Assembly (NCBI RefSeq): GCF_024171865.1
Contig: NZ_JAMTCN010000031.1
Span: 1 to 52,517 of the forward strand
Direction: 5' to 3'
Source: Prauserella aidingensis
Lineage (GTDB): Bacteria > Actinomycetota > Actinomycetes > Mycobacteriales > Pseudonocardiaceae
Length of the DNA: 52,517 nucleotides
In this document: piece by piece, positions 9,871-34,210 of the stretch
How the letters are laid out: each line of letters opens with the position of its first letter
Numbering within the stretch: position 1 is the stretch's first letter
The notes under the pieces: model-generated
The model's input: only the letters and a program-made list of their open reading frames with translations
Databases searched by the model: none
Told to the model about the DNA's origin: nothing
Position numbers and translations under genes: made by a program

Positions 9871-9871
9871 C

Positions 9872-10498: not shown

Positions 10499-10500
10499 GC

Positions 10501-12844
<2,344 letters not shown>

Positions 12845-12845
12845 C

Positions 12846-12896
12846 ACCCGGCCGGGCCGCGGCCGGGCGACCCGCCCGGCCCGCCCGGCCGGTGTC
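12846..12896. terminator. GC-rich inverted repeat between convergent genes
   Basis: CACCCGGCCGGGCC near 12846 is largely complementary to GGCCCGCCCGGCCGGTG near 12880-12896, with mismatches. It lies between the PH-domain gene and the convergent xth gene, so it could end transcription from both sides. Confidence 0.5.
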
Positions 12897-12907
12897 GGAT
12901 CCTGCGA

Positions 12908-13693: not shown

Positions 13694-13721
13694 GCGGGCA
13701 GCCTCGCACAACGAGATCGGT

Positions 13722-13737
13722 GTATAATGACCTATAC
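13722..13737. promoter_or_regulatory. GTATA-N6-TATAC inverted repeat with TATAAT
   Basis: GTATA (13722-13726) and TATAC (13733-13737) form a perfect dyad with a 6-base spacer. The plus strand also contains an exact TATAAT at 13723-13728. This AT-rich island lies about 30 bases in front of xth and on the far side of the HAD gene. It could be an xth operator or promoter, or a promoter for an antisense transcript. Confidence 0.5.
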
Positions 13738-13856
13738 GGCACGGCGCGGTGTCACGCCGTCGTGCCGCGGTGGTCGCCCTCCGTCTCGCCGCCGGTCTCA
13801 TCGCTGCCACGGCAGCCACGGACGACCGAGGGGTCGGTCGTCGGTGGCGGGGCGAG

Positions 13857-14534
13857 CTACAGGGCGAGCAGGCCGGCCACGACCTCGTCGACGCGGCCCG
13901 CGACCACGTGGGGCCGCTCGACCAGCGGGGTGAGGCCGCCTTCGAGGCGGGCCGCGAATCCCGCGAGGAGTCCCGCCCTGGCCGCGCCGTGGGTGTCCCA
14001 CGAATGCACGGCGACGAGTGCCGTCTCGGCCGGGGCGGACCCCGCCTGTTCGCACGCCCAGTGGTATGCGCGGGCCGGCGGTTTGAACGACCGGACGGCT
14101 TCGGTGGACAGCACGCCGCGGAGTCGCCCGCTCATGCCGTGTCTGTCGAGAATGGACTCCAGGACGCTCGCGCCGCCGTGGGTGAAGCCGTAGGCGGGCA
14201 CGCCGGCCTCGGCGAGCAGGGTGAACGCGGTCTCCGCCTCGGGGTGCAGCGGCAGCTCCGTGAAGCCGTCGAGGATGTGGGCGATGGCGTCGTCGCTCAG
14301 GGTGTGCCCGGAGGTGATCGCCAGCTGTGCCGCGGCGACGGCACGGAACGGCGGTGCCTCGCCCGCGAGGGTGTGGGCCATGCCGTCGCGCAGCGTGCGC
14401 GCGAAGAACAGCTCCAGTTCATGGCCCGGCCTGCCCGTCTCGACGAACCGCTCCCGCAGCGGTTCGAGGCGCACGAGCGTCTCGAACACGTCGAACAGGA
14501 CCACCGACGGCCGCCTCGCTGCAGCGCGTGTCAT
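13857..14534 (-). CDS. HAD-superfamily hydrolase (haloacid dehalogenase type)
   Basis: A 225-residue soluble HAD phosphatase/dehalogenase-like protein; substrate unknown. Motif I is [15 protein letters not shown] (the nucleophile Asp aligns; the usual second Asp two residues on is Phe, as in haloacid dehalogenases rather than phosphatases). Motif II is near [10 protein letters not shown], the motif III lysine is in [14 protein letters not shown], and motif IV is in [16 protein letters not shown] 14534 is chosen: it is 7 bases after a TAGCCT -10 element, and no conserved residues occur upstream. Divergent from uvrC. Confidence 0.85.
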
Positions 14535-14541
14535 GGCGGTC

Positions 14542-14547
14542 AGGCTA
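14542..14547 (-). promoter_or_regulatory. Leaderless promoter -10 for the HAD gene
   Basis: TAGCCT on the minus strand ends 7 bases before the ATG at 14534, with no ribosome-binding site between them. Confidence 0.6.
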
Positions 14548-14629
14548 CGTTCCCACCGCGGGTGCCGCGACGGAGGCGCCCGGTCCGCCGACACCCGCGG
14601 CCCCTGACCAGGGTGTCGGCGGGTCGCCA

Positions 14630-14635
14630 TAGAGT
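14630..14635 (+). promoter_or_regulatory. Leaderless promoter -10 for uvrC
   Basis: TAGAGT is followed by 7 bases and then the GTG start of uvrC at 14643. It is less than 100 bases from the divergent HAD promoter. Confidence 0.65.
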
Positions 14636-14642
14636 GGAGACC

Positions 14643-16829
14643 GTGGCTGACCCGTCGACCTACCGGCCCGCTCCGGGGAGCATTCCGGACGAACCGGGCG
14701 TGTACAAGTTCCGCGACGACCGTCGCCGCGTCATCTACGTCGGCAAGGCGAAAAGCCTGCGCAGCAGGCTGAACTCGTACTTCGCGGACCTCGCCGGGCT
14801 GCACCCGCGCACCCGCCAGATGGTCACCACGGCCGCGAGCGTCGAGTGGACGGTCGTGTCCACGGAGGTCGAGGCACTCCAGCTCGAGTACAACTGGATC
14901 AAGGAGTTCGACCCGCGGTTCAACGTCCGCTACCGGGACGACAAGAGCTACCCGGTGCTGGCGGTGACGCTGAACGAGGAGTTCCCGCGGCTGCACGTCT
15001 ACCGCGGGCCGCGGAAGAAGGGTGTGCGCTACTTCGGGCCGTACGCCCACGCGTGGGCGATCCGCGAGACGCTCGACCTGCTGTTGCGGGTGTTCCCCGC
15101 CCGCACCTGCTCGAGCGGTGTGTTCCGCAGGCACTCCCAGATCGGCAGGCCCTGCCTGCTCGGCTACATCGACAAGTGCTCGGCGCCGTGCGTCGGCCGG
15201 GTCACCGCCGACGAGCACCGCGCGATCGTCGAGGACTTCTGCGACTTCCTCGCGGGCAGCACCGACAAGATGGTGCGCAGGCTCGAGAAGGCGATGGCCG
15301 AGGCCTCGGAGGAGCTGGAGTTCGAACGCGCCGCTCGCCTGCGTGACGACCTCGGGGCGCTGCGGCGGGCGATGGAGAAGCAGGCGGTCGTGCTGGGCGA
15401 CGGCACGGACGCGGACATCGTCGCGTTCGCCCACGACGAGCTCGAGGCGGCGGTCCAGATCTTCCACGTGCGGGGCGGTCGGGTGCGCGGGCAGCGCGGC
15501 TGGGTGGTCGACAAGGTCGAGGAGATGGACGTCGCGGCGCTGGTCGAGCAGTTCCTCAGCCAGTTCTACGCCGAGCAGCTCGACCTGGCACGGGAGGCGC
15601 CGGGCGGTGGCGGGCCGACGGTGCCGCGCGAGGTCCTCGTGCCGGAACTGCCCGCCGACGCGCCCGCGATGACCGACTGGTTGTCGGAACTGCGCGGTTC
15701 CCGCGTGCGCCTGCGGGTGCCGCAGCGCGGCGACAAGCGTGCACTCGCCGACACCGTGGAGCGCAACGCCAAGGAGGCGTTCGCCCAGCACAAACTGCGG
15801 AGGGCGGGCGATCTCACCGCGCGGTCGGCGGCCCTGCAGGAACTGCAGGAGCACCTCGCGCTCGACACGGCGCCGCTGCGCATCGAGTGCGTGGACATCA
15901 GCCACACCCAGGGCACCGACGTGGTCGCATCGCTGGTCGTGTTCGAGGACGGCGTCCCGCGGAAGAACGAGTACCGCCGGTTCGCGCTGCGCGAGGCCGC
16001 CGACGAGGGGGACGTCGCGGCCGTCGCCGAGGTGGTCCGGCGGCGCTTCGCCCGCTACCTCAAGGAGACCGCCGCCGACGGTGCGGAGGCCGCCGAGGCG
16101 ACCGGTGCGGGTGACGTCGCTGCCGAGGTCGGCGCCGGGGCAGCGGCACCCGCGTCGGCCGACGGCGGGGTACCGGCCGCGGGGCAGGACGGCCCGCCGG
16201 GGATCGATCCGGAGACCGGCAAGCCGAAGAAGTTCGCGTATCCGCCGAACCTGCTGGTCGTCGACGGCGCGGGTCCGCAGGCGACCGCGGCGGCCGATGT
16301 CCTCGCCGAGCTCGGCATCACCGACGTGGCCGTCGTCGGCCTCGCGAAGCGACTCGAAGAGGTGTGGTTGCCGTCCGACGACGAGCCGGTCATCCTGCCG
16401 AGGACCTCGGACGCGCTGTACCTTCTGCAGCGGGTGCGCGACGAGGCGCACCGGTTCGCCGTCCGGTACCACCGGGAGAAGCGCGGCAAACGGGTGCAGG
16501 CCTCCGAACTGGACGGTGTGCCGGGACTCGGGCAGGCGAGGAAGTCCGCCCTGATCAAGCACTTCGGTTCGGTGAGGAAGCTCAAGCAGGCGGGGGTCGA
16601 CGAGATCGCGCAGGTGCCGGGCTTCGGGAAGCGGACCGCGGAGGCCGTGCACACGGCACTCGCAGGCGGCCGAGCAGGGGAACAGACCGGCGCGGGGAAA
16701 CAGGACGGCGCAGAACAGCAGAGCGCAGAACAGCAGAGCGCGGGGCAGCAGAGCGCGGGCAGGCAGGCCGGCGCAGAGCCACCCGGTGCAGGGGGACGAA
16801 GCATGGAGCGAGGGGAGTCGAACCAGTGA
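14643..16829 (+). CDS. uvrC: Excinuclease ABC subunit C
   Basis: Makes the two incisions of nucleotide-excision repair with UvrAB. Domains in order: GIY-YIG nuclease ([20 protein letters not shown]), a Cys-rich region, the UVR helix pair ([14 protein letters not shown]), an RNase H-like nuclease ([20 protein letters not shown]) and tandem HhH ([20 protein letters not shown]). 728 residues, longer than the usual 600-680, owing to an Ala/Gly insert at about residues 479-525 and a Gln/Ser/Gly-rich tail after residue 675. Start GTG 14643 fits the leaderless promoter. The stop overlaps rapZ (GTGA). Confidence 0.96.
16708..16766 (+). repeat. 15-bp repeats in the uvrC 3' tail
   Basis: GCGCAGAACAGCAGA occurs twice exactly (16708-16722, 16723-16737), then twice as decayed copies. 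They encode a Gln/Ser-rich tail after the last helix-hairpin-helix and keep the frame. Confidence 0.8.
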
Positions 16830-17743
16830 GCAGCGGAGAAGCCGGCAGAGCAGACGCGGCGGAGGAGGACGGCAGGGGCTCCGGAATGGAGGTCGCGGTC
16901 GTCACCGGGCTGTCCGGGGCGGGCCGCAGCACGGCGGCGAAATGCCTGGAGGACCTGGGTTGGTTCGTCGTCGACAACCTGCCGCCGGAGCTGATCTCGA
17001 CGATGGTCGAGCTCGGCGCGCAGTCGAGGGGGGCGATCACGAAGGTCGCGGTGGTGATGGACGTGCGGTCGCGGGCGTTCACCGACGACCTGTCGTCGGT
17101 CATCAAGGGTCTGGACATGCGCGGGTACAAACCGCGGGTGCTGTTCCTGGAGGCGACCGACGCGGTGCTGATCCGCCGGTTCGACCAGGTGCGCCGGGGT
17201 CACCCGATGCAGGGTGACGGCAGGCTCGTCGACGGCATCGGCGCCGAGCGTGCGCTGCTGGAGCCGTTGCGGGCCGAGGCGGATCTGCTGCTGGACACGT
17301 CGTCGCTGTCCGTGCACGATCTGCGCGCCAAGATCGAGGACGCGTTCGGCAGCGAGGCGTCGGCGCAGACCCGGGTGACGGTGCTCTCGTTCGGCTACAA
17401 GTACGGTCTGCCGATGGACTCCGACCTCGTGATGGACGTGCGGTTCCTGCCCAACCCGTTCTGGATCCCCGAGTTGCGTGACCATTCCGGTCTCGACACC
17501 GAGGTGCGCAACTACGTGCTCGGCCAGGAGGGCGCGGAGGAGTTCCTCGACCGGTACCAGGACCTGCTCCGGCTGATCGGCGCGGGGTACAAGCGCGAGG
17601 GCAAGCGGTACCTGACGCTCGCGATCGGCTGCACCGGCGGTAAGCATCGGAGCGTCGCGATCTCGGAGGAACTCGCGAACCGGCTGTCCAAAGAGGATGG
17701 AACGGCCGTGAAGGTGGTGCACCGGGACCTGGGCCGGGAGTGA
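16826..17743 (+). CDS. rapZ: RNase adapter RapZ / nucleotide-binding protein
   Basis: P-loop protein of the YvcJ/RapZ family; in E. coli it controls glucosamine-6-phosphate synthase through small RNAs, while in actinobacteria its target is not settled. 305 residues. The N-terminal P-loop reads [18 protein letters not shown]: Arg stands where Lys is usual, which is common in actinobacterial members. The family motif VVDNLPPEL and C-terminal domain [30 protein letters not shown] are intact. GTG start overlaps uvrC; the stop overlaps yvcK. Part of the conserved uvrC-rapZ-yvcK-whiA set. Confidence 0.94.
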
Positions 17744-18744
17744 ACGAGGAGATGCGCGCGGTCGCCCTGGGCGGGGGTCACGGTCTGCACGCCACGTTGA
17801 CGGCGTTGCGGAGGCTCACCGACGACGTGACGGCGGTGGTCACGGTCGCCGACGACGGCGGGTCGTCGGGCAGGCTCCGCCGGGAACTGGGCCTGCTGCC
17901 GCCCGGCGACCTGCGGAAGGCGCTGGGCGCGCTCGCCGCGGCGGACGACGGCGCGCGGTGGGCCGAGGTGTTCCAGCACCGGTTCGGCGGCAGCGGCGCG
18001 CTCACCGGCCACGCGGTCGGCAATCTCTTGCTGGCGGGGCTGTTCGAGGTGCTCGGCGACCCGGTCGCCGGGCTCGACGAGGCGGCCCGGCTGCTCGGCG
18101 TCTCCGGCCGGGTGCTGCCGATGTCGACCGACCCGCTCGACATCGAGGCCGAGGTGACCGGCCTCGAGCCGGACGGTGCGGTCAGCCGCATCCGCGGGCA
18201 GGTCGCCGTGGCCAGCACCCCGGGGCAGGTCCGGCGGATCACGCTGCACAGCGTGGTGCCCGCCGGTGACACCGGTGCGGGCGCCGCCGTGAAGCCGCCG
18301 CAGGCGTGCCGTGAAGCCGTCGACGCCGTCATGTCGGCCGACGCGGTGTTCCTCGGCCCCGGCTCGTGGTTCACGAGCGTGCTGCCGCACCTGCTCGTGC
18401 CGGAGCTGCACGACGCGCTCGTGAAGACGACGGCGACGAAGATCGTCATACTGAACCTCGTGCCGCAGCCGGGAGAGACGGCGGGCTTCTCACCCGAACA
18501 GCACCTGGACGTACTCTTCCAGCACGCTCCTCGGCTCGGGGTGGACGCCGTGATCGCCGACAGCGATTCGGTGCCGACGCCGGCGCGGCTCCGCTCGGCG
18601 GCCGCAGAGCTGGGCGGGCGTGCTCATCTGGCGTCGATCGCCACCCCGGGTGTGGTGGGGCGGCACGACCCGGATGCGCTGGCTGGTTGTGTGCGAGACG
18701 CGCTCGGTGCGACGAGCGCGAAGGAGGGGCTCTCATGGCGATGA
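17740..18744 (+). CDS. yvcK: YvcK/CofD-fold gluconeogenesis factor
   Basis: Nucleotide-sugar-binding regulator required for growth on gluconeogenic carbon and for peptidoglycan homeostasis (CuvA in mycobacteria). 334 residues. The N-terminal [17 protein letters not shown] and [20 protein letters not shown] match the CofD-like 2-phospho-L-lactate transferase fold. Also visible are [14 protein letters not shown] and [20 protein letters not shown]. Overlaps rapZ at the start (GTGA) and whiA at the end. Confidence 0.95.
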
Positions 18745-19721
18745 CCGCTGCAGTCAAGGACGAACTCAGCCGGCTCGAGCTGACGAAGACGAGCCCACGG
18801 CGGTCCGAGGTGGCGGCGATGCTGCGGTTCGCCGGCGGCCTGCACATCGTGGCGGGCCGGGTCGTGGTCGAGGCGGAACTGGACACCGGTTCGGTGGCCC
18901 GGCGGCTCCGCAAGGAGGTTCACGAGCTGTACGGCCACCAGGCCGAGGTGCACATGATCACCTCGGGCGGGTTGCGCAAGGGCAACCGCTACGTGGTGCG
19001 CGTGGTCAAGGACGGCGAGGGGCTCGCGCGGCAGACCGGCCTGATCGACCAGCGCGGCCGTCCGGTGCGCGGACTGCCCGCGCCCGTGGTGTCCGGCGGG
19101 ATCGCCGACGCCGAGGCGGCCTGGCGCGGCGCGTTCCTGGCGCACGGGTCGCTGACCGAACCGGGGCGGTCCTCGTCGCTCGAGGTGACGTGCCCGGGGC
19201 CGGAGGCGGCGCTGGCGCTCGTCGGCGCGGCCCGCAGGCTCGGCATCCAGGCCAAGTCGCGCGAGGTGCGGGGAGCCGACCGGGTCGTGGTCCGCGACGG
19301 TGACGCCATCGGCGCGCTGCTCACCCGGCTGGGCGCGCATTCGAGCGTGCTGGCGTGGGAGGAGCGGCGCATGCGCCGCGAGGTGCGCGCCACGGCGAAC
19401 CGGCTCGCCAACTTCGACGACGCCAACCTGCGCCGGTCCGCGCGTGCCGCCGTGGCCGCCGCGGCCAGGGTCGAACGGGCGATGGAGATCCTCGCCGAGG
19501 ACGCGCCGGACCACCTGCTGACCGCGGGCAGGCTACGGGTGTCGAACCGGCAGGCCTCGCTCGAGGAGCTCGGCCAGCTCTCCGACCCGCCGATGACGAA
19601 GGATGCCGTCGCAGGCCGGATCCGCAGGCTGCTCGCCATGGCGGATAAGAAGGCCGCCGATCTGGGTATCCCCGACACGGAATCCGCCGTGACCGCGGAG
19701 ATGCTCGACGAGGAAGTGTGA
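18735..19721 (+). CDS. whiA: Sporulation/cell-division regulator WhiA
   Basis: DNA-binding regulator with a degenerate LAGLIDADG homing-endonuclease fold and a C-terminal helix-turn-helix. In Streptomyces it activates division genes together with WhiB. 328 residues. [20 protein letters not shown] begins the core; [20 protein letters not shown] links to the C-terminal HTH ([16 protein letters not shown]). ATG 18735 follows AAGGAGGGG and gives the usual [17 protein letters not shown] 18741 would give an ATGA overlap with yvcK. Confidence 0.96.
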
Positions 19722-22690: not shown

Positions 22691-22693
22691 CCT
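22688..22693 (+). promoter_or_regulatory. Leaderless promoter -10 for the condensin-like operon
   Basis: TAACCT, whose TAA is also the stop codon of the upstream gene, is followed by 6 bases and then GTG 22700. The trio therefore probably has its own promoter and a leaderless first gene. Confidence 0.6.
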
Positions 22694-22699
22694 CACACC

Positions 22700-24313
22700 G
22701 TGCGAGCTGACGAGACGACCGCCGACCCGGACGAGGGGCTCGCGCGCCGGCTGAAGGCGCTCGCGTGCACCGCGCCGCTGCACGACCTCGACGCGCGCAA
22801 ATCCAAGCTCGACTGGGCCGATGCGACCGTGTATCAGATGGCCGAGATCGGGCTCCACACGATCGACCAGGTCACGATCGCGATGGACTTCGACACCGGC
22901 GCCGACCACCACCAGGTCACCCGCCGGTTGCTGCCGTTCATCGCCGCCCAGGCACCCGACCGCACGGCCGACGAGCACACGCGCGTGGCGCGCTGGGTGC
23001 TCGACAACCTCATCAACGTCGGGACCACCGACCGCGGGTTCCGCCGCGTCTACGGCGCGGTCGACGCGGACGGGACGTACCGCAGGCGGGCGTTCGACTT
23101 CAAACTCCTCGTCGAACTCGCCGCGCCGGACGGCGAGGTGTACCTGCGCGCGACCGACGAGGCGATCAACGTGCTCGTCGGCGCACTGGACACCGACGTC
23201 GAATCGGCGCACATCGCCGCCGAGGTGAAACTCGAGAACCTGATCACGCGCGGCAGGCTGGCCGACGCGAAGCTCGCCGCCGAACAGGCGCGGTACCGCA
23301 CGGTGCAGTACGGCGAGATCCTCCGCGCCCGGCTCGACGCGACCCGCCGTGACGTGCGGTCCGTCGACTGGGAACGCGAGCTGCCCGAGCTGCTCGACTC
23401 CGCGCTGACCCACATCGAGTCCCGGTTCCGCGCCGAAACGGCGATCCTGAAGAACATCACCGCGGCCAGGGACGAGGCGGAGGACCCCGGCCACAAGCGC
23501 AGGGCCGCCGAACTGGTCGAGATCGTGGGCGACTGCATCCGCAGGCACACGCAGCTCCAGAACCGGTTGCAGGCGGCGGGTGCGGTGTTCCGCGCCGAGC
23601 AGGACCGGCAGCAGTTCTCCGGGCCGCCCCAGCGCGCGGCGATCGACGTGTTCGGACAGCTGCTCACACCGACCCTGGACCTGCCGCTGTCCGACGCGCT
23701 CGCGCCGGTCGAGGCCTACTTCCGCGCGGGCACCGGCACCAGCGTGCCGAGCGTGCCGTCCCTGCCGTCGCTGGTGTCGTTGCTGCTGCGGCCCGCGCCG
23801 GAACGCGACCACGTCGTCGGCGAGGTGCCGGAGCCCGAGCTGCAGCCCGCGGAGGACACCGACGCGTTCACCGACGAACAGTGGCGGCAGGCCGACGCGC
23901 TGCTCGACCTGCCCGAGGTGCCGCGGCGGCTGTCGGGCCTGCTGGAGGAGGCCCGCGCGACCGATCCGGCCGTCGCGCGGCTGATCGCCCTGCGCGCCGT
24001 GCACGCCTACGGCCCCGAGGTCGGCGGCGCGCTGCGGCAGGCGCAGCAGTCGGTGCTGCTCGCCGTCGACGACGGCACCAGGCTGGACGACCCGGAGATC
24101 GGCGGCGCCGACCTGTTGCTGATGTCGGCCCTGGTCGACGGCGTCGTCGACGAGGGTGGTGAGGTCGACGGCGACGACGGGGACGATGGCGACGGCGGCG
24201 CTGGCGACGACGGCGCTGGCGATGGGGCGGCCTGGGCACCGGACGGCACGGCCGCGGAGCGCGAGCCCGGGTTGTTCGACGACGGCGAGGCGATCGAGGA
24301 GGCGGCTCTGTGA
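22700..24313 (+). CDS. Putative kleisin-like subunit of a condensin-like complex (JetA/MksF-like)
   Basis: A 537-residue soluble protein of unrecognised exact family. It is called kleisin-like from context: first gene of a coupled trio with a small winged-helix protein and an SMC-like ATPase, the JetABC/MksFEB order. Residues 10-125 look like a winged-helix region (TVYQMAEIGLHTIDQVT, TRVARWVLDNLINVG). Then come a beta strand (FKLLVELAAPDGEVYL), a long helical stretch (about 155-305) with RGRLADAKLAAEQARYRT, and a C-terminal winged-helix-like part. The last 60 residues are highly acidic Asp/Gly repeats. GTG 22700 fits a leaderless transcript. The stop overlaps the next start (GTGA). Function is inferred, not demonstrated. 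Confidence 0.65.
   Translation: MRADETTADPDEGLARRLKALACTAPLHDLDARKSKLDWADATVYQMAEIGLHTIDQVTIAMDFDTGADHHQVTRRLLPFIAAQAPDRTADEHTRVARWVLDNLINVGTTDRGFRRVYGAVDADGTYRRRAFDFKLLVELAAPDGEVYLRATDEAINVLVGALDTDVESAHIAAEVKLENLITRGRLADAKLAAEQARYRTVQYGEILRARLDATRRDVRSVDWERELPELLDSALTHIESRFRAETAILKNITAARDEAEDPGHKRRAAELVEIVGDCIRRHTQLQNRLQAAGAVFRAEQDRQQFSGPPQRAAIDVFGQLLTPTLDLPLSDALAPVEAYFRAGTGTSVPSVPSLPSLVSLLLRPAPERDHVVGEVPEPELQPAEDTDAFTDEQWRQADALLDLPEVPRRLSGLLEEARATDPAVARLIALRAVHAYGPEVGGALRQAQQSVLLAVDDGTRLDDPEIGGADLLLMSALVDGVVDEGGEVDGDDGDDGDGGAGDDGAGDGAAWAPDGTAAEREPGLFDDGEAIEEAAL
24160..24240 (+). repeat. GAC/GGC-rich repeats encoding an acidic tail
   Basis: Short direct repeats built from GGCGACGAC and GGCGCTGGCGA encode an Asp/Gly run near the end of the putative kleisin. 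This is a low-complexity coding repeat. Confidence 0.7.
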
Positions 24314-25101
24314 GCACGGGACATGCGTCGGCCGACGCCGAGGCGGCGGCGCGGCTGCTCGCGTTCGGTATGCGACCCAAGCTCGTGCCCGGACGGGACG
24401 TCGTGTACGCCGACCTCGTGCGCCGCTACGGCGAGGACAGCGCGTTCAAGCAACTCACCCACGCCGTCGCCGCGGGTCTGGGACTGATGGTGCTCGAGGT
24501 GAACGCGCAGGCCGGGGCGGTGCTGGCCGCCACGGACGAGTCGATCTTCGAGATCAAGATGGACAGCTACGCGCGGCAGTCGAAGATCCGCGAACGGCGC
24601 GACACCGAGAAGGTGCTGCACGGGCTCATCCACCTGGCCACGGCCGCGCTCGGCTACCCGCGGCCCGACGACCTCGCCAACGACACCTACATCGGCCGGG
24701 TGAGCGTCGAGCAGGTGGACGGTGTCGTGCGGGAGGCGTGCCGCATCCTCGACGAGCGCGCCGCGGCGAACACCGACCCGCTCGCCGACGCGCCCGAACT
24801 GGAGCAGGCGTGGCGGGCCTACGCGCGCAGGCCCGCGGCCGCGGCGACCAAGGACGGCAGGCTCGCCCCCGACACCACGCGCGGCATGGTGACCAGGGCG
24901 CTACGGTTCCTGGCCGAGCAGGGATTCCTCGTCCCGGTGAGTTCCGAGCAGGGCGGAACGTACCGGACGACGCCGCGTTACCAGGTGCAGGTGCGTGAGC
25001 TGGCGGCCGACGCCGCGTTCGACGAGCTGCTCGCGCTCGGCGTCGTGTCGGTGCCGGGTGAGGGGTCGACGCTGCGGGCGTCGGCCGGCGACACGCTGTA
25101 G
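24310..25101 (+). CDS. Winged-helix KITE-like subunit (JetB/MksE-like, DUF4194-type)
   Basis: A 263-residue protein between the putative kleisin and the SMC-like ATPase, matching the size and place of MksE/JetB. An N-terminal winged-helix region (about 10-75, DLVRRYGEDSAFKQLTHAVA) is followed by helices with YARQSKIRERRDTEKVLHGL, and a second winged helix near the end (TTRGMVTRALRFLAEQGFLV, then the wing YRTTPRYQVQVREL). KITE proteins bind the kleisin and DNA. GTG start overlaps the preceding stop; GGGGA precedes the next ATG by 8 bases. Family assignment rests on context and secondary structure read by eye. Confidence 0.65.
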   Translation: MSTGHASADAEAAARLLAFGMRPKLVPGRDVVYADLVRRYGEDSAFKQLTHAVAAGLGLMVLEVNAQAGAVLAATDESIFEIKMDSYARQSKIRERRDTEKVLHGLIHLATAALGYPRPDDLANDTYIGRVSVEQVDGVVREACRILDERAAANTDPLADAPELEQAWRAYARRPAAAATKDGRLAPDTTRGMVTRALRFLAEQGFLVPVSSEQGGTYRTTPRYQVQVRELAADAAFDELLALGVVSVPGEGSTLRASAGDTL

Positions 25102-25109
25102 GGGAGTGG

Positions 25110-28100
25110 ATGTACGAGCTGTCGCGGGTGCGCCTGCACTCGGTCGGTCCCAGCGGTGCGCGGTACCAGGACGTCGTGCTGGACCTCTCCGGCGTCGGGG
25201 ACGTCGTGTCCGCGCCGACGCAGGATGCGCTGTTCGGCGCCGGGGTCCATCACACCGAGAACGGACCGCCGCGCCGTCCGTCGCCCGCGAGCGTGCTGTT
25301 CCTGGAGAACGGCGGCGGCAAATCGGTGCTGATCAAGCTGATCTTCTCGGTGATGCTGCCGGGCCGCAGGCAGGTCGTCGGCACGACCAACACGCGCGTG
25401 CTGGAGAAGTTCGTCGGCGCGAAGGACGTCGCCCACGTGGTGCTCGAGTGGCAGCATGTGGAGACCGGGCAGCGGCTGATCACCGGCAAGGTCTCCGAGT
25501 GGCGCGGGCACGTGGCCTCGTCGGATCCCGCGAACCTCGTCGACTCCTGGTACTGCTTCCGCCCCGGCGCGGAGGTCGGACTGGAGTCGCTGCCGCTGAC
25601 CGCCGACGGCAAGTTGCTGACGATGTCCGGTTTCCACGACCGGATGACGGCGCTGCACGGCGACGTGCCGGAACTGCAGCTGTTCTGGACCCGCAGGCAT
25701 CACGAGTGGACCGAGCGGCTCGACCAGCTCGGCCTGGACACCGAGCTGTTCCGCTACCAGCGCGCCATGAACGCGGGCGAGGGTGAGGCGGCGGACGCGT
25801 TCGCGTTCAACACCGACGAGGCCTTCGTCGAGTTCCTGCTGCGTGCCGTGATCAGCGAGGACGAGCCGAAGGATCTCGCCGACGTCCTGGCCACCTACGC
25901 CGACAACCTCGCCCAGCGCGGCGAGCTGATGACCGAACGCGACTTCGTGGCCGGCGCGCTCGACGCGCTGACCCCACTGATCGACGAGGAGAAGCTCGCG
26001 GCGGCGGCGCGCAAGCTCGCCGACGCGGCGCGCGCCGAGCTGGAGACCCTCGCCGGCGAGGTGGCGGCCCGCAACGCCGCGGAGTCCGAACGGCTCGAGA
26101 CGCTGACCGCGCACGTGCAGGAGGTCGCGGACGCGGAGCGGCTCGCCGAGGGCGATCACCGGCGTAAGCAGGCCGTGCTGACCGAACTCCGCAGGCAGGT
26201 GGCCGCGATGCTGCGGGACGAGGCGCAGGCGGAGTCCGAACGCATCGACGCCGAGCTGGCGGAGGCGAAGACCCTCGCCGAGGCGTGGCGGGAGACCGGG
26301 ACCGTCCTGACCCAGCTGGGCGCCACCCGGAAGGCCGCCGACATCCGCGAACTCGTCGGCAGCAGGGAGGAGAAGGCGCGGCCCGCACTGGAGGCGAAGA
26401 ACGCCGCCGCCACGGCGCTGGCGCGCGGCCTGCTCGGACTGGCGCAGGAGGCGCAGGAGCAGGCCGACGAGGCCGACCGGCAGGCGACGGAGCTGCAGTC
26501 CGAGGCCGAGGAGGCGCAGCGGGAACGCGACGAGGCGACGTCGGCCGCGGCGAACCGCCGTGCCGAGGCCGACGGGCTCGACGCACGACTCGAGGAGGTG
26601 CGGGCGGAGATCGCCCGTGCCACGGCGGACGGACTGCTGAGCCACGGTGCGGACGTGGCCGAGGCGGCACGGACGGCGGCGGCCGAGGGGGAGGAGGCGA
26701 CCGCCGAACTCTCCCGCAGGGAGGCCGAGCTGGAGCGGGTCGCCGAAGAACTGGGAGCCGCCCAGACCGCGGCGCACGAGGCTCAGCGCGAGGCGGCAGG
26801 GGCACGGGACCGGGCCCAGCGCGCGGCCGAGGAGCTCACGCGCGCGCATCGCCGCACCGATGCGCTCGCCGCCGAGCCGCGGCTGGCCGAACTGCTCGGC
26901 ACCGACACGGTCACGCTGGAGACCGACACGCCCGCGGTGCTGGAGCGGCTCGCCGAGGCACGCGGGGAGGCGGAACGCGAGCAGACGACCCTGCGGATGG
27001 AGGAGTCGCGGGACGAACGTGCGCTGGGAGCGCTCGGTTCGGGCGGGCTGCTGCCCGCGCCCGAGGAGCTGCAGGCCGCGCTGGAGGTCCTCGAGCAGGC
27101 GGGTGTCACGGCGTGGTCGGGCTGGCGGTACCTGTCGACGCTGGACCCGTCGACGCGGGCCGACGCGGTGCGACGGGCGCCCCAGCTCGTGTCGGGTGTG
27201 CTGGTGAACGACCCGGCGCAGCTCGGCAGGGCCGAGGAGGTCCTCACCGAGCACCGGCTCCTGCCCGGTGCGGCGATCGCGGTCGGCACCACCGCGGCGC
27301 TGGCCGACCGTGACCTGGGCGAGGCGCCCGGCGTGGCGTTCCTCGTGCCGCCGAACCCGGCGATGTACGACGAGGACGCCGCCGACGCCGAACGCGAGGC
27401 CATCAGCCGGCGCCAGCACGACCGCCAGCGCAGGCTCGCCGAGCTGGAGGAAGCGATCGGCGGTGACGCCGCCCTGACGTGGAAACTCACGGCCTGGCGC
27501 GAGGACTACCCGCCCGGCAGCATCGCCGTCCTGGCCGAGCGGGCACAGGAGGCCGAGACCGAACGGGAGGAGGCCGAACGGCACGCCGACGAGGCCGAAC
27601 GCACCGCGGCGCGGCTGGCCGAGAAGCGGGACGGGCTGCGGGAGCGGATCCCGGCGCTGCGAGCGGAGGCCCGCCGGGCCGAGGACGCCGCCCGCACGCT
27701 CGAGGACCTCGCGGGCCGGGCAGGCCGAATCCCGCAGTGGACCGAGGAGGCCCAGCGGGCCAGGGAGACGGCCACACAGGCGGAGCAGCGGTCGGAGGAC
27801 GCCGCGGCGCGGGCCGCCCGGCTGCGGGACCAGGTGGCCGAACACCGCCGCACCGCCGACGGACACCGGCGGACCGCGACCACGGCACGCGGCGAGCTGG
27901 CCGAGGTGCCCGGCGGCGGGGCGGTGTCGGCCGACGACCCGGTTCCCGACGAACCGGTGGACGCACTCCGGCGGGCGTTCACGTCGGCGTCCGAGGCCTA
28001 CGCGCGGGTCGAGGTGGGCGGTGACCTGCGCGCCGAACTGGAGCAGGCCGAGGCGGCCGAGTCCGCGGCCAGGGCGGCGTTGGAGAACCTCGACGAGGAC

Positions 28101-29552
28101 GTGCGCGTGCGTGCGGCCGAACTGCTCGACACGCCCGACGGCTCCGACTCGTCGGCCCGCGCGGCCGCCCAGGCGCGGGCGGTGCGGGCAGTGGAGACCC
28201 TCGAGGCCGAGCGCACCGAGGTGATCGGCAGGCTCGCCACCCGCACGGCCGAACTCGGCCAGCTGCCGTCGCCGTCGGGACCGGTGGACAGTACGGAACG
28301 GCCGCGCGACGTCGACCACGGCCGAGAGCTCATCGAGGAGGCCGCCGACCAGGTGTCGGCCGCCGCGCGGGAATGGGAGGAGCTGCGGGAACGCCGCGCG
28401 GCCGCGCAGGCCTCCCTCGACACGGCGACACAGAGCGCGTCCGGCTTCCGGCTGCTGGCCGAGTCGCTCGCGACCCACGTGCCCGCCGGCGAGCCGGCGC
28501 GGGCGTTCGACGGCGACGTGGAGGAGGCGCAGGCCAGGGCCACCGAGCTGACCGGACGTCTCACCTCGGCACAGCAGCAGGTCGACGAGGCCGTCGCGCG
28601 GGTACGGGCCGCCGCCGACACGCTGGCGCAGTACGCCGCGGAGAAGCGGTTCGAGCAGCTGGACACGCCGGTACGGCAGCAGGTCGTGGCGGTCCGCCGC
28701 GACAGCCTGCCCGACCACGCCGAGGAATGGGCCGAGGCGCTGCGGCCGCGGCTGCGGACGCTCACCGACGACCTGGCCCAGATCGACCGGCACCGCTCCG
28801 GCATCGTCACCCGGCTGCAGAGCATGGTCGAAGGCGCGATCCGCACGCTCCGCTCGGCCCAGCGCGTCTCGCGTCTGCCGGACGGCCTCGGCGACTGGTC
28901 CGGGCAGGAGTTCCTCCGCATCCGTTTCACCGAGCTCGACGACGCCGAGCTGGCCACGGCCCTCGGCGAGGTCGTCGACGAGGCGGCCGTCGGCAGGACC
29001 GCCGACGGCCGGGACGTCAAGCGCGACGGATTGTCGCTGCTGCTGCGCGGGGTTCGTGCCGCGGTGCCGAAGGGCTTCCGGGTGGACATGCTCAAACCGG
29101 ACTCCGTGCTCCGCACCGAGCGGCAGCGGGTGTCGGAGATCCGCGACGTGTTCTCCGGCGGCCAGCAGCTCACCGCGGCGATCATCCTGTACTGCACCCT
29201 CGCGGCGCTGCGGGCCAACAACCGCGGCAGAATGCGGAACCCGCACTCGGGCGTGCTGTTCCTCGACAATCCGATCGGCCGCGCCTCGGCCGGGTACCTG
29301 CTCGAACTGCAGCGTGCCGTCGCGAGCGCACTGGGCGTGCAGCTGGTGTACACGACCGGCCTGTTCGATGCGGGCGCACTGGCGGAGTTCCCGCTGATCG
29401 TGCGGTTGCGCAACGACGCCGACCTTCGCGCGGGCCGCAAGTACCTGTCGGTCGACGCGACGATGCGGAAACAACTCGACGAGCTGCCCGAACCCGACGG
29501 CACGGCCCGGCTGACCTCGACACGGGTGTACACGAAGTCCGCGGCGAGCTGA
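25110..29552 (+). CDS. SMC-like condensin ATPase (JetC/MksB-like), 1480 residues
   Basis: A long ABC/SMC-type ATPase. Walker A is ENGGGKS at residues 66-72. A head lobe runs to about 290; then come a Glu/Ala/Arg-rich coiled coil (about 290-640), a globular hinge-like region (about 660-760) with GVLVNDPAQLGRAEEV and a second coil to about 1240. The ABC signature is FSGGQQLTAAI at 1348-1358 and Walker B is VLFLDNP, with D1386. The next residue is Asn1387, where SMC proteins have catalytic Glu. ATG 25110 follows GGGGA. A JetD-like TOPRIM partner is not adjacent. Role inferred: DNA loop extrusion, plasmid restriction or chromosome organisation. Confidence 0.85.
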   Translation: MYELSRVRLHSVGPSGARYQDVVLDLSGVGDVVSAPTQDALFGAGVHHTENGPPRRPSPASVLFLENGGGKSVLIKLIFSVMLPGRRQVVGTTNTRVLEKFVGAKDVAHVVLEWQHVETGQRLITGKVSEWRGHVASSDPANLVDSWYCFRPGAEVGLESLPLTADGKLLTMSGFHDRMTALHGDVPELQLFWTRRHHEWTERLDQLGLDTELFRYQRAMNAGEGEAADAFAFNTDEAFVEFLLRAVISEDEPKDLADVLATYADNLAQRGELMTERDFVAGALDALTPLIDEEKLAAAARKLADAARAELETLAGEVAARNAAESERLETLTAHVQEVADAERLAEGDHRRKQAVLTELRRQVAAMLRDEAQAESERIDAELAEAKTLAEAWRETGTVLTQLGATRKAADIRELVGSREEKARPALEAKNAAATALARGLLGLAQEAQEQADEADRQATELQSEAEEAQRERDEATSAAANRRAEADGLDARLEEVRAEIARATADGLLSHGADVAEAARTAAAEGEEATAELSRREAELERVAEELGAAQTAAHEAQREAAGARDRAQRAAEELTRAHRRTDALAAEPRLAELLGTDTVTLETDTPAVLERLAEARGEAEREQTTLRMEESRDERALGALGSGGLLPAPEELQAALEVLEQAGVTAWSGWRYLSTLDPSTRADAVRRAPQLVSGVLVNDPAQLGRAEEVLTEHRLLPGAAIAVGTTAALADRDLGEAPGVAFLVPPNPAMYDEDAADAEREAISRRQHDRQRRLAELEEAIGGDAALTWKLTAWREDYPPGSIAVLAERAQEAETEREEAERHADEAERTAARLAEKRDGLRERIPALRAEARRAEDAARTLEDLAGRAGRIPQWTEEAQRARETATQAEQRSEDAAARAARLRDQVAEHRRTADGHRRTATTARGELAEVPGGGAVSADDPVPDEPVDALRRAFTSASEAYARVEVGGDLRAELEQAEAAESAARAALENLDEDVRVRAAELLDTPDGSDSSARAAAQARAVRAVETLEAERTEVIGRLATRTAELGQLPSPSGPVDSTERPRDVDHGRELIEEAADQVSAAAREWEELRERRAAAQASLDTATQSASGFRLLAESLATHVPAGEPARAFDGDVEEAQARATELTGRLTSAQQQVDEAVARVRAAADTLAQYAAEKRFEQLDTPVRQQVVAVRRDSLPDHAEEWAEALRPRLRTLTDDLAQIDRHRSGIVTRLQSMVEGAIRTLRSAQRVSRLPDGLGDWSGQEFLRIRFTELDDAELATALGEVVDEAAVGRTADGRDVKRDGLSLLLRGVRAAVPKGFRVDMLKPDSVLRTERQRVSEIRDVFSGGQQLTAAIILYCTLAALRANNRGRMRNPHSGVLFLDNPIGRASAGYLLELQRAVASALGVQLVYTTGLFDAGALAEFPLIVRLRNDADLRAGRKYLSVDATMRKQLDELPEPDGTARLTSTRVYTKSAAS

Positions 29553-29602: not shown

Positions 29603-30844
29603 GTGACCCCGACGAAGGCCATGACGACGATGACGACACCGACGATGACGACGGCGGAGCGGCGGGCCCGCCTCGCGCGCCGGCACCTCCTCAGCGATCG
29701 CGCAGCCGGTGTGGCCGACGTCGCCGAGGGTGTGGTCGCGTTGCACGCCACGGATCCGGCCACCGTGTACCTGTCCGCGGCGGCGCGCCTTGCCGGGTCC
29801 GGCACCGGCGGCGATGCCGTCGACGCGGTGGATCACGCGCTGTACGAGGAACGTTCCGCGGTGCGCATGCTCGGCATGCGCCGCACGATGTTCGTCGTCG
29901 GCCGCGACGTCGCGCCCCTCGTGCAGGCGGGTTGTGCCGCCGACATCGAGCGCAAACAACGGCGACTGCTGCTCCGCCACCTCGAGCAGACCGGCATCCC
30001 GGATCTCGGCCGCTGGCTGTCCGGCGTCGAGGACGCCACCGTCGGGGCGCTGCGGGCACGCGGAACGGCGCGGGCGGCCCAGCTGGCCGAGGACGAACCC
30101 CGCCTGCGCACCGAGATCGTCATGGCGGCGGGCAAGCCGTACGAATCGACCACCTACATCACCAACCGGGTGCTGTTCCTGCTGGCGGCAGCCGGCCGCA
30201 TCGTGCGCGGCCGCCCCGGCGGATCGTGGCTGTCCACGCAGTACGAGTGGTCGCTCACCGACGACTGGCTGCCCGGCGGCATCCCCGAGCCGGAACCCGA
30301 GGAGGCGCGGACCGCGTTGCTGCAGCGGTACCTGCGCGCCTACGGGCCGGTGCGGGAGGCCGACATCCGCTGGTGGACCGGGTGGACGGCCGCGCAGACC
30401 CGCCGCGCGCTGGCCGATGCCGCCGCCGAGACGGTCGACCTCGACGGCGCGGCCGCCTTCGTGGCCTCCGGCGACGTCGAACCGACGCCCGAACCGCAGC
30501 CGTGGGTGGCGCTCCTGCCCGCGCTCGATCCGACACCGATGGGCTGGACGGATCGCGACTGGTTCGTGGGGCCGCACCGCTCGGCGCTGTTCGACCGCAA
30601 CGGCAACATCGGCCCCACGATCTGGTGCGACGGCCGCATCGTCGGCGGTTGGGCCCACCGGTGGAACGGCGAGGGCACCGGGGGAGAGGTGGCGACGCGG
30701 CTGCTGGAGGACGTCGGCACCGAGCGGACGGCACTGGTGGCGGCCGAGGCCGAACGGCTCACGCAACGGTTGCGCAGCTGGCTGTCCGACGCGGTGGTCG
30801 TGCCGCGATTCCGAACCCCGCTGGAACGGGAGTTGAGCGCGTGA
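29603..30844 (+). CDS. HTH_42 winged-helix protein (AlkZ/AlkX-like superfamily)
   Basis: A 413-residue protein of the winged-helix DNA-binding family that includes the DNA glycosylases AlkZ (interstrand crosslink repair) and AlkX/YcaQ. The core begins at ARLARRHLLSDRA, and the segment VVALHATDPATVYLSAAARL aligns with the AlkZ catalytic region. There Gln-x-Gln or Gln-x-Asp is replaced by His-Ala-Thr-Asp, so glycosylase activity cannot be assumed. Later motifs: RRTMFVVGRD, RYLRAYGPVREADIRWWTGW, GNIGPTIWCDGRIVGGWAHR. GTG 29603 follows a TAGACA hexamer by 6 bases, but in-frame ATG codons up to residue 16 are possible starts because the leader is Met/Thr repeats. It starts 50 bases after the SMC-like gene. 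Confidence 0.8.
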   Translation: MTPTKAMTTMTTPTMTTAERRARLARRHLLSDRAAGVADVAEGVVALHATDPATVYLSAAARLAGSGTGGDAVDAVDHALYEERSAVRMLGMRRTMFVVGRDVAPLVQAGCAADIERKQRRLLLRHLEQTGIPDLGRWLSGVEDATVGALRARGTARAAQLAEDEPRLRTEIVMAAGKPYESTTYITNRVLFLLAAAGRIVRGRPGGSWLSTQYEWSLTDDWLPGGIPEPEPEEARTALLQRYLRAYGPVREADIRWWTGWTAAQTRRALADAAAETVDLDGAAAFVASGDVEPTPEPQPWVALLPALDPTPMGWTDRDWFVGPHRSALFDRNGNIGPTIWCDGRIVGGWAHRWNGEGTGGEVATRLLEDVGTERTALVAAEAERLTQRLRSWLSDAVVVPRFRTPLERELSA

Positions 30845-31008: not shown

Positions 31009-32049
<1,041 letters not shown>

Positions 32050-32052
32050 GCC

Positions 32053-33258
32053 ATGGCGGTCAAGTCACTCGACGATCTGGTAGCCGACGGCGCGGTCGCG
32101 GGACGGTACGTGCTGGTCCGGTCGGACCTGAACGTGCCGCTCGACGGCGCCACCATCACCGACGACGGCCGGGTCCGTGCCGCACTGCCGACCATCCGCC
32201 GTCTCGCGGAAGCGGACGCGCGGGTGGTCGTCACCGCGCACCTGGGCAGGCCCAAGGGTGCGCCCGACGACACGTACTCGCTGCGGCCCGTCGCCGCGCG
32301 CCTCGGTGAGCTCCTGGGCGGCGACGTCCCGCTCGCAGGCGACGTCGTCGGACGCGAGGCCCGTGACGTCACGGCGAGCCTGGCCGACGGCCAGGTCGCC
32401 ATGCTGGAGAACGTCCGCTTCGACCCGCGGGAGACGAGCAAGGACGCCGACGAGCGCGGCGCACTGGCCCGTGAACTCGCCGCGGTGGTCGGGTCCGGTG
32501 CCGCGTTCGTGTCCGACGGTTTCGGCGTGGTGCACCGCAAGCAGGCGTCCGTCTACGACGTCGCCCGCGAGCTGCCCGCGTACGCGGGCGGTCTGGTGCT
32601 GTCCGAGCTCGAGGTGCTGCGCACCCTGACCGGTGACCCGCAGCGGCCCTACGCCGTCGTGCTCGGCGGTTCGAAGGTCTCCGACAAGCTCGCCGTTATC
32701 GAGGCGCTGCTGCCGAAGGTCGATCGGCTGCTGGTCGGCGGCGGCATGTGCTTCACGTTCCTCGCCGCGCAGGGCCAGGGCGTCGGCGGCTCCCTGCTCG
32801 AGACGGACATGGTGGACACGTGCAAGCGGCTGCTGGCCGACGCGGGCGACAAGCTCGTGCTGCCGGTCGACGTCGTCGCCGCGGACGCGTTCTCCGCCGA
32901 CGCCACGACCCGCACGGTCGCGGCCGGAGAGATCGAGGACGGCTGGATGGGCCTCGACATCGGCCCGGAGTCGGTGCGCCTGTTCGCCGACGCCGTCGGC
33001 TCGGCGAAGACCGTGTTCTGGAACGGCCCGATGGGCGTGTTCGAGATGGCACCGTTCGAGGGGGGCACCCGCGGCGTGGCCCGCGCTATCGCCGACGGCG
33101 ACGCCTTCAGCGTCGTCGGCGGCGGCGACTCGGCGGCCGCGGTACGGCAGCTCGAACTGCCCGAGGACGGGTTCTCGCACATCTCCACCGGCGGCGGGGC
33201 CTCGCTGGAGTACCTGGAGGGCAAAGAGCTGCCCGGCGTGGCGGTCCTGAGCGAGTGA
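32053..33258 (+). CDS. pgk: Phosphoglycerate kinase
   Basis: Transfers phosphate from 1,3-bisphosphoglycerate to ADP. Motifs: [38 protein letters not shown] (the usual FVNDAFGxxHR has Ser and Gly substitutions), [30 protein letters not shown] and [14 protein letters not shown]. 401 residues, normal. ATG 32053 sits 3 bases after gap, so the two are coupled. A large hairpin follows before tpiA. Confidence 0.97.
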
Positions 33259-33282
33259 GCCGCAGGCTCGGCGCGCGTGGTC

Positions 33283-33322
33283 GTACCGAGGGCACTTGCC
33301 GTACGGCACGTGCCCTCGGTAC
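33283..33322. promoter_or_regulatory. Large perfect hairpin between pgk and tpiA
   Basis: Arms GTACCGAGGGCAC (33283-33295) and GTGCCCTCGGTAC (33310-33322) are perfectly complementary, and the spacer itself contains the palindrome TGCCGTACGGCA (33297-33308). It could be an attenuator, an RNA-processing or stability hairpin, or an operator. It lies 25 bases after the pgk stop. Confidence 0.6.
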
Positions 33323-33352
33323 ACATCCCCGAGAAGTCCCGTCCCCGTCCCA

Positions 33353-33417
33353 CTCGTGATCCGGAAGGCCCCCGGGAAGCTTCGCTCCACCCCAGACCCC
33401 CCTCGTGAACCGGAAGG
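33353..33417 (+). repeat. 16-bp direct repeat upstream of tpiA
   Basis: CTCGTGATCCGGAAGG (33353-33368) and CTCGTGAACCGGAAGG (33402-33417) differ at one base and start 49 bases apart. The second overlaps the tpiA ribosome site (GGAAGG). Confidence 0.7.
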
Positions 33418-33424
33418 TGCAGGC

Positions 33425-34210
33425 ATGAGCCGCAAACCGCTCGTCGCCGGCAACTGGAAGATGAATCTGAACCACCTCGAGGCCATCGCCCTGGTGCAGA
33501 AGATCGCCTTCTCGCTGCCGGAGAAGTACTACTCGAAGGTGGACGTGGCGGTCATTCCGCCGTTCACCGACATCCGCAGCGTGCAGACGCTCGTCGACGG
33601 CGACAAGCTCCTGCTCACCTACGGTGCGCAGGACGTGTCCCAGCACGCGTCCGGCGCCTACACCGGTGAGGTGTCGGCGTCGATGCTCGCCAAGCTCGGC
33701 TGCACCTACGCGGTGATCGGCCACTCGGAGCGGCGCGAGCACCACGACGAGACCGACGAGGTCGTGGGCAAGAAGGTGCGCGCGGCGCTCAAGAACGAGC
33801 TGACGCCGATCCTGTGTGTCGGCGAGCCTCTCGAGGTCCGGGAGGCCGGCGACCACATCACGCACACGACCACGCAGCTCATCGAGGCCCTGAAGGGGCT
33901 CAAGAGCGAGCAGGTGGCCGACATCGTGGTGGCGTACGAACCGGTGTGGGCGATCGGCACGGGCCGGGTTGCGACGCCCGCCGACGCCGAGGAGGTGTGC
34001 GCCGCGCTGCGCAACGCCCTGGCCGAGAAGTACGGTGCCGACCTCGCCGCAGGAGTGCGCGTCCTCTACGGTGGCTCGGTGAAATCGGGCAACATCGCGG
34101 AGCTCATCGCCTGTGAGAACGTGGACGGTGCGCTCGTCGGCGGCGCCAGCCTCGACGGCGACGAATTCACGAAACTCTGCGCGATGGCCGCAGGAGGCCC
34201 GCTACCCTGA
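33425..34210 (+). CDS. tpiA: Triosephosphate isomerase
   Basis: Interconverts dihydroxyacetone phosphate and glyceraldehyde-3-phosphate. 261 residues with the full catalytic set: N10 and K12 in AGNWKMN, H100 in VIGHSERR, E172 in [11 protein letters not shown], and the phosphate-loop YGGSVK. ATG 33425 follows GGAAGG; the longer upstream frame is only read-through of the hairpin. Separated from pgk by 166 bases containing a large hairpin and a direct repeat, so its expression may be partly uncoupled. Confidence 0.97.

What the first reader, a model, noticed from the sequence alone, without database searches (positions are those of the whole stretch)
22700..29552. Condensin-like three-gene set without an adjacent JetD-type nuclease
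Gene order (537-residue putative kleisin, 263-residue two-winged-helix KITE-like protein, 1480-residue SMC-like ATPase), overlapping reading frames and a private promoter match JetABC/MksFEB loop-extruding systems. The first two proteins do not resemble the JetA/MksF and JetB/MksE sequences I know beyond size and fold, and the next gene is an HTH_42 protein rather than the TOPRIM nuclease JetD. This could be a diverged Wadjet-like defence or chromosome-organising complex with a different effector, or a housekeeping Mks complex.
Basis: partly seen in the sequence, partly recalled or inferred. Interest (0 to 1): 0.78.

Follow-up and report, generated by a model that had tools for sequence, protein, structure and literature searches.

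The report
Wadjet motor without its nuclease
Three adjacent genes encode a DNA-handling motor of the Wadjet anti-plasmid type that lacks its DNA-cutting partner; relatives of it, mostly without the cutter, turn up in nearly every sampled genome of the Streptomyces genus, so a former defence machine may have become an overlooked chromosome organiser.

Summary
The three genes are real (jetA 22700-24313, jetB 24310-25101, jetC 25110-29552). JetA and JetC are strong type III Wadjet matches (694 and 1950 bits); JetB is weak by profile but its model is nearest JetB/MukE. No JetD3 nuclease lies beside them or elsewhere in the 99.95%-complete genome. This is a pattern: of 51 genomes carrying the family, 41 have no strong JetD3 match. 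In 199 genomes of the Streptomyces genus, JetA3 is in 193 and JetD3 in 14; JetD3 occurs in 13 of 14 genomes with several JetA3 copies but in 1 of 179 with one, and follows a diverged accessory copy in all 9 loci inspected. Here the operon sits between whiA and gapA, is under purifying selection, and has no recurrent fourth gene; the closest relative lacks the AlkZ-like neighbour. In Amycolatopsis rifamycinica a jetD looks secondarily inserted, with the old jetC tail left behind it. Best reading: a nuclease-free, Mks-like loop extruder of the Wadjet III lineage, acting on the chromosome beside canonical SMC. That function is inferred, not shown. New variant of a known kind.

The parts
22700..24313 (+). 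jetA: kleisin subunit, type III Wadjet family (JetA3), 537 aa
24310..25101 (+). jetB: KITE-like subunit with two winged-helix units, 263 aa
25110..29552 (+). jetC: SMC-like ATPase, type III (JetC3), 1480 aa, with Walker A, signature and Walker B-like motifs
   Evidence: PADLOC PDLC00588 1950 bits over 1-1478; motifs; dN/dS 0.08-0.29
29603..30844 (+). AlkZ-like DNA glycosylase family gene (HTH_42); read as a neighbour, not a subunit
   Evidence: PF06224 211 bits; not found near jetABC in L002, L003, L006, L007 nor in the fetched Streptomyces loci
13749..19718 (+). upstream housekeeping cluster uvrC-rapZ-yvcK(CofD family)-whiA
   Evidence: Pfam; the YvcK-like gene is in the flanks of 19 of 80 fetched loci
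31009..34210 (+). downstream gapA-pgk-tpiA
   Evidence: Pfam; the GAPDH gene is in the flanks of 21 of 80 fetched loci

Best explanation
The locus encodes a JetA(kleisin)-JetB(KITE-like)-JetC(SMC ATPase) motor of the type III Wadjet family that has lost, or never had, the JetD TOPRIM nuclease. Shown here: the family of JetA and JetC, the absence of JetD3 from the genome, maintenance without an adjacent JetD under purifying selection in two large clades, and JetA3 in 193 of 199 sampled Streptomyces-genus genomes, mostly without JetD3. Inferred: JetC uses ATP to extrude chromosomal DNA loops, JetA bridges the heads and dimerises two motors, JetB sits on the kleisin, and the product is chromosome compaction or segregation beside canonical SMC, much as the MksBEF of Pseudomonas aeruginosa is thought to be a Wadjet that lost JetD. 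JetD behaves as a module that comes and goes, usually travelling with accessory JetABC copies.
For: JetA3 694 bits, JetC3 1950 bits; models nearest MukF and JetB/MukE. No JetD3 in the own genome; 41 of 51 family-bearing genomes have no strong match. Streptomyces genus: JetA3 in 193 of 199, JetD3 in 14 of 199; 13 of 14 multi-copy against 1 of 179 single-copy genomes (Fisher p 4e-18). Of 20 loci read there, 9 have JetD, all diverged copies; 5 conserved copies of two-copy genomes and 5 single-copy loci have none, and one conserved copy runs off its contig. JetD state changes 10 times on an 86-row JetABC tree, 9 forced by starred branches; 22 of 22 Streptomycetaceae rows lack it. whiA-gapA setting. 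dN/dS 0.025-0.22 in ten pairs without adjacent JetD. Motifs kept with and without JetD. In A. rifamycinica jetD is followed by a remnant of the jetC 3' end that is in frame in six sister species. Canonical SMC is also present.
Against: No experiment shows loop extrusion or any effect on the chromosome. In the own family JetA3 is in only 100 of 297 genomes, so it is not universally needed there; 6 of 199 Streptomyces-genus genomes lack it. JetC's Walker B-like motif reads LDNP, with Asn where a catalytic Glu is expected (recalled), in 86 of 86 rows, so ATP hydrolysis is not certain. The tree is quick, has long branches and is unrooted, so a direction of JetD change is suggested only for A. rifamycinica. 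JetB's structural match stands only just above unrelated winged-helix proteins. The Wadjet profile origin fits a defence role as well.
Confidence: 0.6

Rival explanations
1. Non-cleaving defence: JetABC still recognises small circular or foreign DNA by extruding it, but silences, traps or blocks it instead of cutting it.
For: The profiles it matches are catalogued as defence proteins; the trio keeps its motifs. That other SMC complexes (Smc5/6) act against viral DNA is in the abstract of PMC10586767 (listing); that they do so without cutting is recalled.
Against: JetA3 in 193 of 199 Streptomyces-genus genomes and a housekeeping neighbourhood here are unlike the patchy JetD3 (14 of 199).
Confidence: 0.22
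2. JetABC borrows a nuclease encoded elsewhere, for example the Wadjet II JetD2 of the same genome.
For: The own genome carries JetA2, JetC2 and JetD2 on another contig.
Against: JetD2 is in 16 of 51 genomes only, and the JetD3 genes read at locus level sit right after a jetC of their own. An unknown nuclease in trans is not excluded.
Confidence: 0.1
3. A decaying defence operon that lost its effector.
For: JetD is missing; changes of its state are frequent.
Against: dN/dS 0.025-0.29 for the three genes, comparable to gapA and yvcK; motifs kept; JetA3 nearly universal in the sampled Streptomyces genus.
Confidence: 0.03
4. A Wadjet-like system with a new effector, the AlkZ-like glycosylase downstream.
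For: It follows jetC by 50 bases on the same strand and occurs within the flanks of many Amycolatopsis loci.
Against: Not found near jetABC in the closest relative L002, in L003, L006, L007 or in the fetched Streptomyces loci; up to about 3 kb away in others.
Confidence: 0.03

Closest known systems
Wadjet type III (JetABCD)
   Same: JetA3 and JetC3 profiles at 694 and 1950 bits; A-B-C order as in the JetD-bearing relatives. A paper notes that Wadjet-III lacks a hinge channel and tends to long coiled coils (PMC12647877, passages)
   Different: No JetD3 in operon or genome; JetB barely matched by profile; housekeeping setting
MksBEF of Pseudomonas aeruginosa
   Same: Kleisin-KITE-SMC trio; [quoted passage not shown] coexists with SMC (PMC7485682, abstract start in the listing)
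   Different: No Mks profile was tested; [quoted passage not shown] other lineage and other Wadjet type
MukBEF
   Different: No Pfam family of MukBEF matched at E <= 1
MksBEFG of Corynebacterium glutamicum
   Same: Actinobacterial SMC-like complex
   Different: Has the MksG nuclease and acts on plasmids (PMC10123090, passages)

Membership tests
Wadjet type III | JetA3 subunit | tested here: met
   PDLC00567 E 3.3e-209, 694 bits
Wadjet type III | JetC3 subunit | tested here: met
   PDLC00588 1950 bits, residues 1-1478
Wadjet type III | JetB3 subunit | tested here: inconclusive
   12.8 bits, E 0.011; 19 of 37 aligned members match PDLC00573 at E <= 1, best 5.9e-5
Wadjet type III | JetD nuclease beside the trio or in the genome | tested here: not met
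   None beside jetABC; no PDLC00594 match in G000 at E <= 0.01
Wadjet type III | ATP-dependent cleavage of circular plasmids | not testable with these tools
   Needs experiment
Mks/Muk-type condensin | kleisin of the MukF/JetA kind | tested here: met
   JetA3 profile; MukF chains first by Z (13.7, 13.5), though CorA helices reach 13.2
Mks/Muk-type condensin | KITE subunit | tested here: inconclusive
   [not shown]
Mks/Muk-type condensin | sequence membership in a MukBEF family | tested here: not met
   No Pfam MukB/E/F match at E <= 1 (that Pfam holds such families is recalled); no Mks profile tested
Mks/Muk-type condensin | acts in chromosome organisation | not testable with these tools
   Needs Hi-C and deletion strains

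The most novel reading that the evidence does not exclude
A nuclease-free branch of Wadjet III is a second, core chromosome-organising condensin of Streptomyces and of the Amycolatopsis-Prauserella group, unrecognised beside canonical SMC, and JetD is a module that can be lost from and re-inserted into such motors: a natural switch between chromosome organiser and plasmid killer.
Probability: 0.5. Interest if true: 0.82.

Novelty: new variant of a known kind. Interest (0 to 1): 0.68.

Why it matters
Whether condensins such as MukBEF and MksBEF descend from defence machines is an open question. Here the switch can be compared within genera and within single genomes: a conserved JetABC without JetD, an accessory JetABCD in the same cell, and one apparent re-insertion of jetD. 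If the conserved copy organises chromosomes, models of Streptomyces chromosome folding that consider SMC alone are incomplete, and a defence annotation of such loci would mislead.

Tried and rejected
Searching the own family with JetC itself gave no answer twice; JetA and JetD profiles were used instead. PF09983 proved too weak for type III JetD (it missed L046's genome), so PDLC00594 was used. The one PF09983 hit in the own genome (L001, 12.6 bits, below cut-off) is a Wadjet II JetD2. I looked for columns of JetA/B/C conserved in 10 JetD-bearing rows and lost without JetD: one JetC column (1142 of the padded sequence) fell under 20% in 42 Pseudonocardiaceae rows; the many Streptomyces differences look like ordinary clade divergence. 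PDB sequence searches with JetC, JetA, JetB and JetD gave one Jet relative that stands out, 7til JetD (E 0.009) for JetD; MksG 8b7f followed at E 0.24. The origin of JetD in L052 could not be polarised. JetD3 was not searched in the 297 family genomes (cap reached). ScpA and ScpB were not searched.

Rows dropped: the 86-row tree needed JetA and a JetC of 1300 aa or more, which left out three JetD-bearing loci (L038, L114, L117), L061 and the short contigs; two of its rows are identical (L007, L124). The JetA tree holds 116 rows; 8 whose contig ends before or in jetC were not counted for JetD, leaving 24 with and 84 without; it also needs 10 changes. G484's conserved copy runs off its contig, G536's JetD copy starts at a contig end without JetA, and G517 has two JetA3 and no JetD3. 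Two of the 193 JetA3 hits are weak (G467 1e-30, G427 4e-101). A JetA fold search by Foldseek alone could not be queued.
Full report

jetA and jetB overlap by four bases; jetB and jetC are eight bases apart. jetA begins nine bases after the previous ORF ends, and a sigma-70-type scan of 22300-22900 found nothing, so a private promoter is unsupported. The downstream gene is AlkZ-like. The neighbourhood is uvrC-rapZ-yvcK-whiA upstream and gapA-pgk-tpiA downstream, not a defence island. Within 10-kb flanks the GAPDH gene is shared by 21 and the YvcK-like gene by 19 of the 80 fetched loci, all Pseudonocardiaceae; L006, L036 and the Pseudonocardia loci have other neighbours.

No JetD. In some, jetC is followed by a TOPRIM-like gene of 332-374 residues; three of these, and a fourth from a second A. 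azurea locus, match PADLOC JetD3 PDLC00594 at 330-385 bits. That profile was searched in the own genome and in 50 genomes behind 50 of the 80 loci: no match in the own genome at E <= 0.01; strong matches (E <= 2e-73) in 10 of 51; two more (G007, G012) only weak, at places that PF09983 hits strongly and that are probably other JetD types; none in 39. In 7 of the 10 the JetD lies beside the JetABC that brought the locus in; in 3 (P. alba, A. azurea, A. nivea) it lies with a second, diverged JetABC copy, while the copy like the window's has none. In an order-wide sample JetA3 was in 30 of 298 genomes and JetD3 in 8 of 298 at E <= 1e-20; all 3 genomes with two JetA3 matches had JetD3, against 4 of 27 with one; one genome (G240) had JetD3 without JetA3 at the cut-off. 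In the own family JetA3 is in 100 of 297 genomes and 21 of 46 genera, among them the seven own-genus genomes listed (the list of misses is cut).

A conserved copy in Streptomyces. In 199 genomes of the genus of G043 (the genome of L054, Streptomyces massasporeus; the others are unnamed), JetA3 is in 193 at E <= 1e-20 (JetB and JetC were not searched there) and JetD3 in 14 at E <= 1e-10. Of 14 genomes with two or more JetA3 matches 13 have JetD3; of 179 with one match, one does (G536; Fisher p 4e-18). I read 20 loci. All nine with JetD have it right after jetC, in copies whose JetA is at most 62% identical to the references (in G536, whose contig starts inside the operon, JetB is 60%). In five two-copy genomes the other copy, 80-95% identical to a Streptomyces reference, has no JetD in the 3-4 kb read behind it; in a sixth (G484) that copy runs off its contig. 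Five single-copy loci have none. Nine conserved copies on large contigs lie 7-35% from the nearer contig end. A DefenseFinder survey reports Wadjet enriched towards Streptomyces chromosome ends (PMC10482375, passages); whether it counted this copy I cannot tell.

Evolution. On a tree of concatenated JetA, JetB and JetC (86 rows, 13 with adjacent JetD) JetD changes state 10 times, 9 of them forced by starred branches; 22 of 22 Streptomycetaceae rows lack it, and in the 40-row group around the window (support 89) two have it, Tamaricihabitans L052 and Amycolatopsis rifamycinica L029. The tree is a quick search with several long branches and is unrooted. In L029 the jetD stop is followed by sequence reading DSAEDEQPA-stop in another frame; six sister species have that stretch (in three of them with T for P) as the in-frame 3' end of jetC, and two outgroup species end in the related SAEEEQPA. 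The simplest reading is that jetD was inserted into the 3' end of a JetD-less jetC. A deletion in the sisters is possible but would need the outgroup tails to have arisen separately. L029 and L052 JetD are 36% identical while their JetA and JetC are 75% and 62% identical; pairs with JetA only 62-63% identical (L042-L046, L046-L053) reach 49-51% in JetD, again pointing to separate acquisition.

Selection. Against six close relatives dN/dS is 0.13-0.21 for jetA, 0.035-0.12 for jetB and 0.08-0.29 for jetC, like gapA (0.05-0.26) and the yvcK-like gene (0.06-0.19; labelled whiA in that script). In ten pairs from Streptomyces, Amycolatopsis and Actinophytocola loci the values are 0.025-0.22; none of these loci has JetD beside jetC, though the genomes of L018 and L024 have one with another copy. 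The Walker A lysine is present in 13 of 13 rows with JetD and 69 of 73 without (3 gapped); the signature and LDNP motifs are kept in both. These look like maintained machines, not remnants.

No substitute effector. The AlkZ-like gene was not found (over 100 bits) near jetABC in the closest relative (L002, 97% identical over the three proteins), in L003, L006 and L007, or in the fetched Streptomyces loci, some of which have short flanks. No other gene recurs beside the trio across clades. JetD2 of Wadjet II is in 16 of 51 genomes, including the own one.

How it most likely works. By the established biology of JetABC, MukBEF and MksBEF, JetC dimers extrude DNA loops with ATP, JetA links heads and motors, and JetB modulates. 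In Wadjet, JetD cuts once a small circle has been fully extruded (PMC10586767, passages and section 7; PMC12647877, passages). Without JetD the same motor would fold the chromosome; the review says P. aeruginosa MksBEF likely arose this way. The own genome and three others tested also have canonical SMC over the family cut-off, so this would be a second condensin. That step is inferred.

What is in print. Ten searches of the open library, for Wadjet with Streptomyces, phrases for missing JetD, Streptomyces with MksB, JetABC with these genera, and type III Wadjet, showed in their listings no description of a JetD-less conserved JetABC in these bacteria. One search listed 15 of 1,420 papers, all for unrelated co-mentions, and says little. 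A 2026 Streptomyces SMC paper (PMC13121528, passages) cites a mycobacterial Mks condensin and holds no 'Wadjet'; PMC8410768 (passages) holds neither 'MksB' nor 'Wadjet'. Preprints and most subscription papers are not covered.

Verdict. The trio is a nuclease-free member of the Wadjet III motor lineage; it should not be filed as a Wadjet defence system, because JetD was tested and is absent. It works, most likely, like an Mks condensin.

Noticed in passing
G000:C9:68000-87999 (L122): 9644-10864, 10870-14901, 16088-17665, minus strand: The same genome carries a Wadjet type II system: JetA2 654 bits, JetC2 1438 bits, JetD2 about 470 bits; JetB2 was not looked for.
   Followed up: partly
window 25110-29552, JetC Walker B-like region: The motif reads LDNP in 86 of 86 rows, with Asn where ABC ATPases are expected (recalled) to have a catalytic Glu, in JetD-bearing and JetD-less members alike.
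   Followed up: no
L029:16704-17830: jetD in Amycolatopsis rifamycinica is followed by a remnant of the jetC 3' end found in frame in sister species.
   Followed up: yes
window 24310-25101 and alignment A2: No PADLOC-DB 2.0.0 JetB model matches this clade well (best E 5.9e-5 among 37 members), so tools that require JetB could miss even complete systems.
   Followed up: no
L043:16891-18177: In Cellulomonas timonensis a JetABC without adjacent JetD is followed by an AAA_14/DUF4143 gene matching PADLOC PDC-S01, 255 bits.
   Followed up: no
G646 (own genus), C65 and C85: Three JetA3 matches, two of them neighbouring pieces on C85; possibly a broken or mis-assembled copy plus another one.
   Followed up: no
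window 21050-22690: 546-residue ORF just upstream of jetA, with a Gly/Asn-rich tail and no Pfam match over cut-off; relatives at 79-93% identity are in L002-L005.
   Followed up: no
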